64,000 bases of DNA from Sphingopyxis sp. (GTDB lineage: Bacteria; Pseudomonadota; Alphaproteobacteria; Sphingomonadales; Sphingomonadaceae): NCBI RefSeq assembly GCF_019459305.1, contig NZ_JAIBES010000046.1, forward strand, positions 1 through 64,000, read 5' to 3'. This document shows positions 3,585 to 28,975 of the stretch, one piece after another; the stretch's first letter is position 1, and each line of letters starts with the position of its first letter. The translations under genes and the position numbers were made by a program. The notes under the pieces are model-generated. The model was not told the DNA's origin. It saw nothing but the letters and a program-made list of their open reading frames with translations, and did no database searches.

Positions 3585-3600
3585 TACGTAGTTCGACGGT
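3585..3600. promoter_or_regulatory. dyad TACGTA-N4-GACGGT (stress-set motif)
   Basis: A left half TACGTA and a right half GACGGT are separated by GTTC. This is an imperfect copy of the dyad best seen at 25950-25965 (TCCGTA-N4-TACGGA). It sits 36 bases before the erythromycin-esterase-like start. TACGTAG also fits the heptamer TAMGTAG that I recall for rhizobial FixJ. Match found by eye. Confidence 0.35.
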
Positions 3601-3881
3601 TGGGACGAGCCGCAATGTGCATCGGCATGCTTTCGTCGAGATAGGTGTGAGGGCGGGGCATGGTGCCGTACAGGCGCCGACGTTGTCAGCCGCGCCGCGA
3701 GCAGTCGGGTCGCAATCGGCCAGAAGGCGATAGGACGCTCGAGTGAAGTTGATCGCCCCTTGACCGAGAAAAACGGCCAAAGGCACTGAGCGACACCTAC
3801 GGGCCATTGCGTATTCAGTCGGGGCAAAGCCCCTGCTAGATCGTGGATGTCGCCGGGGTTTCGGCCAAGGCGGCAAAAGGG

Positions 3882-3909
3882 CCGGGAGCGATGGAGACAT
3901 CGCTCCCGG
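3882..3909. repeat. perfect 11-bp inverted repeat (hairpin)
   Basis: CCGGGAGCGAT pairs perfectly with ATCGCTCCCGG around a 6-base loop (GGAGAC). A short T run (ATTTT) begins about 7 bases after the stem. It lies about 55 bases before the DUF6629-like start. It could be an intrinsic terminator of a short upstream transcript or a leader structure; the sequence does not decide. Confidence 0.6.
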
Positions 3910-3964
3910 TGCCACATTTTGGCAATGCGCTCCTGTTGCAAACCATTTTTGGGAAGGGCGACGC

Positions 3965-25879: not shown

Positions 25880-26221
25880 TTCATCTCACCTCGCTCGCCG
25901 TCGCAACGGCGGGAGTGCCCAGCCTAGGTCGCGCCGCAGTGCCGGTCTGTCCGTACTACTACGGATGGAGCGTGACCCTGAGCCACGGGTAAGGCCGTCG
26001 CTGTCCGGTACCCTCCGCGAGCGAGTGATTTCGGGAACTCGCCAAATCGGGTGCGGAAGTCATCTTTTAACCGTGTCACGACGCGGCGGCGGGGGCACGA
26101 AATCCTTTGTGGCGACAAGCAGCAAGGACGGTCGAGATTTCCTTTCATGCCGGGTGAAGTCAGGCCCACCGGAACGCTTTTCGTGCTCCGGTCAGAGGTA
26201 GATCGAAGGTTCAGGTTCAAT
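25880..26221. other. 342-base divergent regulatory region
   Basis: The gap between ppsA (leftward) and the P-type ATPase gene (rightward) shows no convincing coding sequence. An open frame upstream of the ATPase start from 26051 has no family match and I treat it as leader. The perfect TCCGTA-N4-TACGGA dyad at 25950-25965 is the main visible element. Confidence 0.45.
25950..25965. promoter_or_regulatory. perfect dyad TCCGTA-CTAC-TACGGA
   Basis: A perfect 6-4-6 inverted repeat between the divergent ppsA and P-type ATPase genes, 71 bases from the ppsA ATG and 257 from the ATPase ATG. Imperfect copies occur in most other promoter gaps of this half of the window. The size fits a dimeric LuxR/NarL/FixJ-type response regulator; the regulator is not encoded in the window. 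Confidence 0.5.
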
Positions 26222-28930
26222 ATGATGCATAATGATGGGCTGCGCTATCACGCGCTTTCGAAAGAGGAGAGTTTCCGCGCTCTCCAGTCGTGCATCGAGG
26301 GCCTGTCGTCCGCCGAGGCGGCCTGCAGGCTTGCCCAACTTGGGCCAAATCGGTTGCCCGAACCAGCGCGGCGCAGTGCTGTCGTCCGCTTTCTTCTCCA
26401 TTTCCACAATATCCTCATATATGTGCTGCTCGGGGCGGCGCTGATCACTGCGGCGTTGGGCCACTGGGTCGATACCGGCGTGATCCTGGCGGTGGTGCTG
26501 GCCAATGCTGCAATTGGCTTCATTCAAGAGGGGCGCGCAGAAAATGCTATGGCCGCCATTCGCGGCATGCTGGCACCCCATACAGCCGTGATCCGCGATG
26601 GCGCGCGGCGGACGATCGATGCCGCCGAACTGGTGCGCGGGGATATCGTGCTGCTCGAAGCCGGGGACCGGGTTCCGGCAGACCTGCGGATTGTCGAGGC
26701 CCGCGGGCTGAAAGCGGAAGAGGCCATATTGACCGGCGAGTCGGTTCCCACCGACAAAAGACCGGATGCCGTCGCACCGTCGGCGCTGCTTGGCGACCGG
26801 AGTTCGCTGCTGTTCAGCGGCACGCTGGTTTTAGCGGGCACGGCGCGGGGGCTGGTCGTCGCGACAGCGGCGGACACCGAGATCGGTCGGATCAGCGGCC
26901 TGCTCTCGCGCGTCGAGACACTCACGACGCCTCTCGTTCGGCAGATGAACCTGTTCGCCCGCTGGCTGACGGTTTTCATTCTCATCGTCAGCGCCGGTCT
27001 GCTGGCGTTCGGGGTCTTTGTGCATGATATGCCGTTCGGCGAGATATTCATGATTGTGGTCGGGCTTTCAGTAGCAGCGATTCCTGAAGGCTTGCCGGCA
27101 GTTCTGACGATCACGCTCGCCGTAGGCGTTCAGGCAATGGCACGGCGAAACGCCATCGTCCGCCGCTTGCCGGCCATCGAAACACTCGGTTCGGTGTCGG
27201 TGATCTGTACCGACAAGACCGGAACGCTCACACGCAACGAAATGATGGTGACCGCGATCGTTGCGCCCAATCGGCGATATTGCGTTGAGGGGCATGGATA
27301 CGACCCCATCGGCATCGTGAATGACGAGGATGGTGTCACCATCGGCGACGACGAGCCTGTGCTGCTGGAGATCGCGCGCATTGCCGCCCTGTGCAACGAC
27401 GCCGAACTTCGCCGAACGGATGACGGCTGGTTCGTTGAAGGCGACCCCATGGAGGGGGCACTGCATGCGCTTGCCGGTAAGATATCAGGCAGTCTCAGCG
27501 GCGAGTGCGGCAGTTTTTCGCGTACCGATGCAATCCCGTTTGATGCGGCACACCGCTACATGGCGGTGCTCAATCATGATCATGAGGGCAGTGCGTACAT
27601 CGACGTCAAGGGAGCGCCGGAAGCCATTCTCGACCTTTGCAAGGATCAGCGGGGGCTCCAAGGCCAATCTGCGCCGCTTGACCGGGCCTATTGGCTGGAG
27701 AATATCGAGGCCTTGGCGAACCAGGGTCAGCGCGTCATCGCCTTGGCGTCGCGGACGACGAACCAGGGGGTAACGATACTCAACAGCGCCGATCTGACCG
27801 GCGCGCTGACCATGGTCGGTCTGGTCGGATTGATCGATCCGCCCCGGCCCGAAGCGATCGACGCGGTGGCCGAGTGTCATGCCGCCGGTATCCGGGTAAA
27901 GATGATTACCGGCGATCACGGCGCCACGGCGCGCGCCATTGCTGCACAGATCGGACTGCAAAATAGTGAGCGGGTGCTGACGGGCGCTGATATCGAGCAG
28001 ATGTCGGACGCAGAACTTGCCGACACGGCGCTCGAAACCGACGTCTTTGCGCGGACATCGCCCTATCATAAACTCCGCTTGGTGATGGCACTGCAGTCGC
28101 GCGGACTGACCGTTGCCATGACCGGCGACGGCGTCAACGACGCGCCGGCGCTTAAGCGCGCCGAGGCCGGAACGGCCATGGGGATCAAGGGCAGCGAAGC
28201 CGCCAAGGAAGCGTCGGAGCTGGTGCTCGCCGACGATAATTTCGCTTCGATTGCCGCCGCCGTCCGCGAGGGGCGAACGGTTTACGACAATATCAAGAAG
28301 GTAATCAGCTGGACGCTGCCCACCAACGCCGGCGAAGCCATGACAATCATCGTCGCATTGCTCGCGGGCATGACGTTGCCCATCACCGCCGTTCAAATCC
28401 TCTGGATCAATCTCATCACCGCCACCACGCTGGGTATCGCGCTTGCGTTCGAACCCAGCGAGAAAGGCACGATGCGGCGTCCACCGCGTCGCCGCGACGC
28501 GCCGCTACTGAGTGGGGAGCTCGTCTGGCATATCCTGCTGGTGTCAGTATTGTTCGTGGTCGCTGTCTTTGGTGTCTTCGCTTATGCGATCGAAAAGGGC
28601 TATTCGACTGCACTTGCACAGACGATGGCGGTCAACACGCTCGTGGTGCTCGAGATTTTCCACCTCTTCTTTATTCGCAACATTCATGGAACATCGCTGA
28701 CGCTGGCGGCGGTACGCGGCACGCCCGTCGTCTGGTATGCCGTCATCACCGTTACGGCGGCCCAATTTGCCATCACCTATGTCGCACCGCTGCAAGCCAT
28801 ATTCGGAACCGAGGCAGTGCCCTTGGTCGACGGATTGCTGATCGTGGCGACTGGCTCGGTCTTCTTTGCCCTGATTGAAACCGAAAAACAGATGCGGCTC
28901 GCGTTCCGCCGTTTTGCAGGCGAGGCCTGA
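26222..28930 (+). CDS. P-type cation-transporting ATPase (P2 type)
   Basis: A 902-residue P-type ATPase. An N-terminal cation-ATPase domain comes first, then the actuator with ILTGESVPTDK. The fourth membrane segment holds VAAIPEGLPAVLT. The phosphorylated Asp lies in ICTDKTGTLTRNEM (about residue 331), and the hinge is TGDGVNDAPALKRAE (about 635). Five or six C-terminal segments follow. PEGLP and SWTLPTNAGEAM put it with P2-type Ca/Na/K pumps. The sixth segment reads LWINLITATTLGIALAFEP, lacking the Asp of the NLVTDG motif that binds Ca2+ in SERCA-type pumps, so the ion is uncertain; mycobacterial CtpF-like pumps are a possible comparison. Start at ATG 26222 or 26225; an upstream ATG 26051 adds 57 unmatched residues. 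Confidence 0.88.
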   Translation: MMHNDGLRYHALSKEESFRALQSCIEGLSSAEAACRLAQLGPNRLPEPARRSAVVRFLLHFHNILIYVLLGAALITAALGHWVDTGVILAVVLANAAIGFIQEGRAENAMAAIRGMLAPHTAVIRDGARRTIDAAELVRGDIVLLEAGDRVPADLRIVEARGLKAEEAILTGESVPTDKRPDAVAPSALLGDRSSLLFSGTLVLAGTARGLVVATAADTEIGRISGLLSRVETLTTPLVRQMNLFARWLTVFILIVSAGLLAFGVFVHDMPFGEIFMIVVGLSVAAIPEGLPAVLTITLAVGVQAMARRNAIVRRLPAIETLGSVSVICTDKTGTLTRNEMMVTAIVAPNRRYCVEGHGYDPIGIVNDEDGVTIGDDEPVLLEIARIAALCNDAELRRTDDGWFVEGDPMEGALHALAGKISGSLSGECGSFSRTDAIPFDAAHRYMAVLNHDHEGSAYIDVKGAPEAILDLCKDQRGLQGQSAPLDRAYWLENIEALANQGQRVIALASRTTNQGVTILNSADLTGALTMVGLVGLIDPPRPEAIDAVAECHAAGIRVKMITGDHGATARAIAAQIGLQNSERVLTGADIEQMSDAELADTALETDVFARTSPYHKLRLVMALQSRGLTVAMTGDGVNDAPALKRAEAGTAMGIKGSEAAKEASELVLADDNFASIAAAVREGRTVYDNIKKVISWTLPTNAGEAMTIIVALLAGMTLPITAVQILWINLITATTLGIALAFEPSEKGTMRRPPRRRDAPLLSGELVWHILLVSVLFVVAVFGVFAYAIEKGYSTALAQTMAVNTLVVLEIFHLFFIRNIHGTSLTLAAVRGTPVVWYAVITVTAAQFAITYVAPLQAIFGTEAVPLVDGLLIVATGSVFFALIETEKQMRLAFRRFAGEA

Positions 28931-28959
28931 CGCATGTGACCCGTTACCGACGGTCCGGC

Positions 28960-28975
28960 TACGTAGATTTACGGC
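28960..28975. promoter_or_regulatory. dyad TACGTA-N4-TACGGC
   Basis: A good copy of the stress-set dyad (5 of 6 in each half) 177 bases before the Usp start at 29152. It includes CTACGTAG, which fits the FixJ-type heptamer TAMGTAG as I recall it. Confidence 0.4.

What the first reader, a model, noticed from the sequence alone, without database searches (positions are those of the whole stretch)
3585..28975. One dyad, TMCGTA-N4-TACKGA, recurs across the stress-gene promoters
Seen directly: a perfect TCCGTA-CTAC-TACGGA at 25950 and imperfect copies at 3585, 7271, 8211, 19470, 20883 and 28960, each in a promoter gap of the esterase, antiporter/Usp, pfkB, Usp-ndvB, Usp/ldhA, ppsA/ATPase and last Usp units. 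The spacer is always 4 bases. I did not see it before the catabolic genes. TACGTAG also fits the FixJ heptamer TAMGTAG as I recall it. Inference: a single FixJ/NarL-like regulator, encoded elsewhere, controls all of region 1 as a low-oxygen or redox regulon. The copies were found by eye and several are weak.
Basis: partly seen in the sequence, partly recalled or inferred. Interest (0 to 1): 0.7.

Follow-up and report, generated by a model that had tools for sequence, protein, structure and literature searches.

The report
FixJ-type oxygen-response boxes before stress genes
A repeated 18-letter DNA mark in front of stress and fermentation genes of this bacterium looks like the docking site of FixJ, a regulator switched on by low oxygen, which suggests that a control system best known from nitrogen-fixing bacteria here runs part of a survival gene island.

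Summary
All seven sites exist and are a real operator. A matrix learned de novo from relatives, the window's genome left out, converges on an 18-bp dyad, ATMCGKAA-NN-TTMCGKAT, and scores all seven (7.2-16.7 bits). A matrix from fixJ loci without ppsA finds, at >=10 bits, 7 sites in 4,148 intergenic and 0 in 27,628 coding positions of region 1; intergenic DNA elsewhere in the genome has 1 in 33,378 at >=11 bits. The published S. meliloti FixJ site scores 17.7 bits, reached by 0 of 20,000 shuffles. FixJ, and FixL with a heme-type PAS, are encoded on other contigs, and a box precedes the fnr gene there. In relatives, boxes precede usp, hsp20, fixL, crp/fnr and ppsA; fixJ lies within 35 kb of ppsA in 20 of 45 genomes, and named examples are on plasmids typed conjugative. 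A -10 element starts 23 bp past the box, the geometry of class II activation. Best reading: a direct, enlarged FixLJ low-oxygen regulon. Binding and expression are untested. 'Single regulator' and 'all of region 1' go too far: FixJ paralogues exist, and kefB, ATPase, usp3 and usp4 are not supported.

The parts
3584..3601 (-). weak FixJ-type box before the erythromycin-esterase family gene (start 3549), -10 TAGGAT at the usual distance
   Evidence: 7.2 bits, 8.7 with the half-set matrix; register
   Evidence: 13.3 bits; register
7270..7287 (+). box before Usp1 (GTG start 7337), -10 CAGAAT; the kefB side lacks a -10 at that distance
   Evidence: 16.7 bits; register
8210..8227 (+). box before pfkB (start 8264); TA one base off the usual register
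   Evidence: 14.0 bits; register
19469..19486 (-). weaker box before Usp2-ndvB (start 19355), -10 TAGGCT
   Evidence: 9.1 bits, 7.8 with the half-set matrix; register
   Evidence: 11.6 bits; register
20882..20899 (+). box before ldhA-lctP (start 20985), -10 TAAATG
   Evidence: 13.1 bits; register
   Evidence: 14.5 bits; register
28959..28976 (+). box 176 bp before Usp4 (start 29152) without a -10 at the usual distance; target uncertain
   Evidence: 12.9 bits; register fails
7337..8164 (+). universal stress protein gene (Usp1)
   Evidence: Pfam; start placed by eye
8264..9220 (+). pfkB-family kinase gene
   Evidence: Pfam
9868..18357 (-). ndvB-type glucan enzyme gene behind Usp2
   Evidence: Pfam
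18354..19355 (-). universal stress protein gene (Usp2)
   Evidence: Pfam
20985..21995 (+). D-2-hydroxyacid (lactate-type) dehydrogenase gene
   Evidence: Pfam; NCBIfam below cut-offs
23429..25879 (-). PEP synthase gene ppsA
   Evidence: Pfam; NCBIfam TIGR01418 above cut-off
2212..3549 (-). erythromycin-esterase family gene
   Evidence: Pfam

Best explanation
The dyads are FixJ operators. At low oxygen the heme kinase FixL phosphorylates FixJ; FixJ binds the 18-bp palindrome, which takes the place of the -35 box (centre near -43.5), and directly activates promoters of usp1, ppsA, ldhA-lctP, usp2-ndvB, probably pfkB, the esterase gene and DUF6629, while fnr on C16, also boxed, is a second tier. 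Shown here: anatomy and statistics of the sites, conservation in relatives, linkage to fixLJ, the -10 register, likeness to the published FixJ site. Inferred: binding, phosphorylation, activation rather than repression, oxygen as the signal, and which FixJ paralogue acts.
For: Blind motif discovery in 39 loci of relatives finds the dyad, ranked above the FNR dyad. At >=11 bits: 141 sites in island gaps (1.62/kb) against 1 in control gaps (0.022/kb). Window region 1: 7 of 4,148 gap positions, 0 of 27,628 coding; own background gaps 1 of 33,378. The S. meliloti FixJ site quoted in PMC4999443 scores 17.7 bits. fixJ on C16, heme-type PAS in FixL. Box before fnr. Footprint before usp in 8 of 8 promoters. 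fixJ within 35 kb of ppsA in 20 of 45 genomes; 4.89 sites per genome with strong FixJ against 2.96 without. ppsA box in 11 of 23 genomes with strong FixJ, 0 of 6 others. -10 at a fixed distance. Held-out plasmids: 18 of 15,088 intergenic positions against 3 of 107,286 coding.
Against: No binding or expression data. FixJ falls 10 bits short of the NCBIfam cut-off. FixJ paralogues could share the boxes. 12 of 23 genomes with strong FixJ have no ppsA box. Genomes with middling FixJ (55) show 3.0 sites, like those without. A Caulobacter plasmid with 69% FixJ has no site. Boxes at 3584 and 19469 are weak, and Usp4 lacks the -10 register. Island coding DNA also has 105 hits (0.152/kb).
Confidence: 0.86

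Rival explanations
1. The box belongs to, or is shared with, another regulator of the same islands: a FixJ paralogue (C110) or the 101-aa protein with a FixJ-like HTH beside fixJ.
For: Paralogue 61% identical with boxes a few kb away; HTH-only ORF beside fixJ, itself behind a 16.0-bit box.
Against: The S. meliloti FixJ site fits the matrix, and the training loci were chosen by similarity to the C16 FixJ or to PpsA. Neither fact excludes sharing.
Confidence: 0.3
2. Region 1 is a low-oxygen regulon, but of FNR/FixK; the dyads are secondary.
For: FNR boxes precede ppsA in G326, G176 and G062 and a usp gene of Sphingopyxis granuli (PMC7713065, section read). TTGA-N6-TCAA is the best dyad other than runs of T in 80 ATPase loci.
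Against: The one perfect FNR box in the window is at 30160, behind region 1. The FixJ-type dyad outranks the FNR dyad in island gaps.
Confidence: 0.05
3. The seven dyads are chance likenesses picked by eye.
Against: A matrix learned without this genome recovers them at a density far above genes and background.
Confidence: 0.02

Closest known systems
FixLJ-FixK cascade of Rhizobiales and Caulobacterales, with the FixJ site of S. meliloti fixK
   Same: FixJ and a heme-type FixL; the published site TAAGTAATTTCCCTTA fits the matrix at 17.7 bits; a box before an fnr-type gene, as FixJ acts on fixK.
   Different: In print the predicted FixJ regulon is four genes in Rhizobiales and fixK alone in Caulobacterales (PMC4999443, passages). 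Here boxes stand directly before many stress and fermentation genes.
Plasmid-borne fixLJ of sphingomonads (Sphingobium hydrophobicum C1)
   Same: Acquired fixLJ copies on plasmids, guessed to help in oxygen-poor sediment (PMC6783567, passages).
   Different: No binding site or regulon in the passages I saw.
FNR regulon of Sphingopyxis granuli TFA
   Same: Low-oxygen control of a usp gene and of a flavin monooxygenase, boxes mostly near -41.5 (PMC7713065, one section read).
   Different: Other regulator and other box (TTGAY-N4-RTCAA).

Membership tests
FixJ operator | fits the experimentally determined FixJ site of S. meliloti fixK | tested here: met
   17.7 bits on the 16 central positions, 0 of 20,000 shuffles; site as quoted in PMC4999443
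FixJ operator | stands before the fixK/fnr-type gene of the same genome | tested here: met
   ATACGTACTCTTCCTGAC, 13.9 bits, before the C16 fnr-type gene
FixJ operator | bound by FixJ, more so when phosphorylated | not testable with these tools
   needs gel shift or footprint
FixJ protein | receiver plus GerE-type HTH, best match FixJ | tested here: met
   best solved match B. japonicum FixJ 5xso, E 3e-50; NCBIfam FixJ is the best model
FixJ protein | NCBIfam equivalog cut-off | tested here: not met
   245 bits against 255; the query carried an N-terminal extension of 75 aa
FixL protein | heme-binding PAS before the kinase domain | tested here: met
   aligned with the B. japonicum FixL heme PAS 1dp6, E 1e-48; that the conserved His of RHDNYI and Arg of GIGR are the heme and oxygen residues is recalled
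FixLJ regulon | induction at low oxygen through FixJ | not testable with these tools
   needs expression data
FNR/FixK box | TTGAY-N4-RTCAA in the region-1 promoters | tested here: not met
   the one perfect match in the window is at 30160, none in region-1 promoters
NarL site | inverted TACYYMT heptamers 2 bp apart (recalled) | not tested
   no scan made

The most novel reading that the evidence does not exclude
FixLJ in sphingomonads is the master of a mobile hypoxia-survival module: FixJ, not its usual deputy FixK/FNR, directly switches dozens of promoters (usp, hsp20, ppsA, ldhA, ndvB, pfkB, adh, BON) on islands that travel on conjugative plasmids together with fixLJ; where fixJ is missing, some of the same genes stand behind FNR boxes instead.
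Probability: 0.5. Interest if true: 0.72.

Novelty: new variant of a known kind. Interest (0 to 1): 0.62.

Why it matters
The predicted FixJ regulon in print is tiny, which makes FixJ look like a relay to fixK. Here it looks like a direct regulator of a large stress and fermentation programme, carried in part on plasmids. The work gives a FixJ matrix for an order for which my searches found none in print, predicts targets gene by gene, and makes the choice between FixJ and FNR control of the same genes testable.

Tried and rejected

ATPase-centred loci of 80 named genomes: most show few of the other region-1 genes; CGTA-N4-TACG is not enriched in their gaps, the FNR dyad is. A first reading of the ppsA upstreams took the wrong side for the loci on the minus strand and was redone. 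A sequence-only model of the site rang nowhere in the genome at E<=10; it is too short for E-values on 4 Mb, so this says nothing either way.

Assigning the perfect dyad to the ATPase and 7270 to kefB: rejected for lack of a -10 at the usual distance. Chance, and FNR control of region 1: disfavoured, see rivals.

Left out before counts: one search used the 313 rows of family f1 out of 396 genomes (83 rows of other families left out), and for the PpsA-fixJ distance 45 of 53 genomes (8 with partial PpsA matches left out); the FixJ places listed end near E 1e-53 ('more matches are not listed'). Of 141 selected downstream proteins 138 were scanned (3 at locus ends left out). A control gene list was drawn up but not scanned. 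The 100-base locus L263 was left out. The -10 p-value counts 9 chosen gene-box pairs; with the four alternative pairs it is 7 of 13.
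Full report
What is there. The window is contig C87:1-64000 of a 3.97-Mb draft genome in 155 contigs. Its first 30 kb hold stress and fermentation genes: an erythromycin-esterase family protein, DUF6629, a kefB-type antiporter, four usp genes, pfkB, a CBS protein, a 2,829-aa ndvB-type glucan enzyme, a D-lactate-type dehydrogenase with lactate permease, PEP synthase and a cation ATPase. From 30160 on come a flavin monooxygenase and TonB receptors, a TPP enzyme, an aldehyde dehydrogenase and a kynureninase-like enzyme.

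The observation. I therefore learned the motif elsewhere.

Learning it blind. Relatives were searched with the ATPase (60 genomes), PpsA (53 of 396 genomes of the order match at E<=1e-50) and the genome's own FixJ (155 of 396 at E<=1e-40). From 39 stretches around fixJ or ppsA in relatives, the window's genome excluded, I took 377 intergenic segments, 87,128 bases. Counting 4-mer-gap-4-mer pairs (gaps 0-12) against coding DNA of the same loci put GTAA-N2-TCCC, CGTA-N3-ACCC and CGTA-N4-CCCT among the first, CGTA-N4-TACG further down, all above the FNR dyad TTGA-N6-TCAA. EM from 40 random seeds and one FNR seed gave ATACGTAATGTTCCGGAT as the best motif, from a random seed. As a palindromic matrix, sites of 11 bits or more occur 141 times in these gaps (1.62/kb), once in the gaps of 20 control stretches from the same genomes (0.022/kb) and twice in shuffled gaps. 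In coding DNA they occur 105 times in the island loci (0.152/kb) and 15 times in the control loci (0.041/kb); part of the island figure may be promoters covered by my simple gene caller.

The window judged by it. Two more stand at 3797 (13.3) and 19507 (11.6). A second matrix, learned only from 22 fixJ loci without ppsA, gives 8.7, 17.7, 15.0, 7.8, 11.9, 14.7, 13.4; at 10 bits, 7 of 4,148 intergenic positions, 0 of 27,628 coding positions and 3 of 32,189 positions of the rest of the window. In twenty 20-kb stretches of the same genome (contigs known to me from earlier pattern hits), gaps hold 1 site in 33,378 positions at 11 bits, against 6 in 3,349 for window 1-30000 with the same crude gene caller, which puts the seventh site inside a called ORF (Fisher p=4e-6). 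With the full-set matrix the background is 4 in 33,378. By exact pattern the genome as a whole is unremarkable: 1 match against 1 control at two mismatches, 42 against 32 at three; but the 42 are clustered, four on the 28-kb contig C16, three within 3.2 kb of C110, two on C87, two within 3.3 kb of C114.

Which regulator. C16 ends in fixJ, a 101-aa ORF with a FixJ-like HTH and the end of a fixL; a kinase beginning with DUF4118, two PAS and HisKA runs off the start of C114, probably the front of that fixL. Its second PAS aligns with the heme PAS of B. japonicum FixL over 130 residues. FixJ's best solved match is B. japonicum FixJ, its best NCBIfam model is FixJ, ten bits below the cut-off. C16 also holds an fnr-type gene (FnrL model 222 bits, cut-off 300) with the box ATACGTACTCTTCCTGAC before it, and usp and hsp20 genes with boxes. 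The published S. meliloti fixK site TAAGTAATTTCCCTTA, quoted in PMC4999443 (passages), scores 17.7 bits on the 16 central positions; none of 20,000 shuffles does. The same passages quote the SELEX motifs GTAMGTAG and GTAGTTTCCC; PMC13327599 (passages) names GTACGTAG in the R. palustris fixK promoter. The genome has three FixJ-like matches at E<=1e-40, of which two are listed (C16, C110), so a single regulator is not shown.

Conservation and linkage. In 8 of 8 aligned promoters of the C16 usp gene and its relatives the box stands amid diverged flanks, identical in 5 and with 2-4 changes in 3. In 5 hsp20 promoters two boxes can be followed, one half of the second changed in 2. The fnr box is in place in 2 of 7 relatives; the others have a box-like sequence elsewhere or none that I saw. 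Before ppsA, a box of 10 bits or more stands in 11 of 23 relatives with strong FixJ and in 0 of 6 with weak or no FixJ (p=0.04); two of the 11 (G416, G217) show the same sequence, and in some of the 12 misses the upstream DNA looks coding by eye. Perfect FNR boxes stand there in G326 and G176, without FixJ at E<=1e-40, and in G062, which has FixJ. fixJ lies within 35 kb of ppsA in 20 of 45 genomes, though not, as far as the contigs show, in the window's genome. Genomes of the family with strong FixJ (E<=1e-65, 97) have 4.89 sites each, those without (161) 2.96 and middling ones (55) 3.0; controls 2.01, 1.86 and 1.42. Relatedness makes the p-value of 3e-7 too small. Named examples: plasmid pLA4 of Novosphingobium pentaromativorans US6-1, typed conjugative, carries a glucoamylase-family gene, pfkB, ppsA, fixL-type kinase, fixJ and usp together; Sphingopyxis sp. 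DBS4 pDB-2 and a Sphingomonas panacis plasmid, also typed conjugative, carry fixLJ with usp, adh or hsp20. On these three and a Caulobacter plasmid together: 18 sites in 15,088 intergenic positions, 3 in 107,286 coding; the Caulobacter one has none.

How it works. In 117 promoters of relatives aligned on the box, one downstream position stands out: A at offset 24 (67%; mean 19%), with TA at 23-24 in 32% and T at 28 in 40%. Read as a -10 hexamer this puts the box at about -52 to -35, centre -43.5, the class II position. In the window the register holds for EryEst (TAGGAT), DUF6629 (TAGATC), Usp1 (CAGAAT), Usp2-NdvB twice (TAGGCT, CAGTAT), LdhA (TAAATG) and PpsA (TAGGCT): A at 24 in 7 of 9 gene-box pairs, TA in 5 of 9 (p=2e-4 and 1e-5). 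If the four alternative pairs (kefB, ATPase, 3797 towards EryEst, a weak 20754) are counted, all failures, it is 7 of 13 and 5 of 13 (p=5e-3 and 1e-4). In 18 pairs elsewhere in this genome A stands at 24 in 13 and TA in 7. PfkB is one base off and Usp4 fails. So the perfect dyad belongs to ppsA rather than to the ATPase. Distances from box centre to start codon in relatives peak at 50-100 bp.

What is controlled. Of 138 proteins behind boxes in relatives: Usp 19, PAS-HisKA kinases 11, Hsp20 10, response regulators 9, Crp-type HTH 7, PEP synthase 6, BON 6, zinc ADH 4, GNAT 4. I drew up a control gene list but did not scan it, so enrichment over other island genes is not tested.

Known or new. 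PMC4999443 (passages) reports FixLJ in 4 of 4 Caulobacterales and 15 of 20 Rhizobiales, names no other order in the passages I saw, and predicts a FixJ regulon of four genes or of fixK alone. PMC6783567 (passages) reports acquired fixLJ on Sphingobium plasmids. My ten paper searches of the open library, judged by listings and the four papers opened, showed no FixJ box or regulon in sphingomonads; most subscription papers are not held.

Verdict. A real, conserved operator, most likely FixJ's. FixLJ is a known kind; the new part is a large direct regulon on stress islands that are partly plasmid-borne. Binding and expression are untested.

Noticed in passing
window 30160-30173: Perfect FNR/FixK box TTGATCCAAATCAA just before the flavin monooxygenase gene; a flavin monooxygenase of Sphingopyxis granuli has an Fnr box at -40.5 (PMC7713065).
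   Followed up: partly
G000:C110:25564-31802 (L190): Second FixJ paralogue (61%) with three boxes within 3.2 kb, a few kb away, near a usp and a BON gene.
   Followed up: partly
L153, L157, L156 (ppsA promoters of G326, G176, G062): Perfect FNR boxes before ppsA, in two genomes without strong FixJ and one with it: possible exchange of one low-oxygen regulator for another.
   Followed up: partly
L189:6814-7119 (-): 101-aa ORF with only a FixJ-like HTH beside fixJ, behind a 16.0-bit box.
   Followed up: no
L299:5387-6397: A 2-hydroxyacid dehydrogenase on plasmid pDB-2 is listed as a vanH resistance gene at 38% identity; the window's ldhA also hits VanH models far below their cut-offs. Probably ordinary lactate-type dehydrogenases.
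   Followed up: no
L298 (Caulobacter sp. FWC26 plasmid p1): A fixLJ island with copper genes and no box of 11 bits or more.
   Followed up: no
G000:C14:58001-78000 (L196) and C51:5000-19025 (L191): Further clusters of boxes in the same genome, near a usp, a cold-shock protein gene and a GNAT gene among others.
   Followed up: partly
L188:19264-19281 and relatives: The usp box on C16 is followed by an almost invariant ATCG in the aligned promoters.
   Followed up: no
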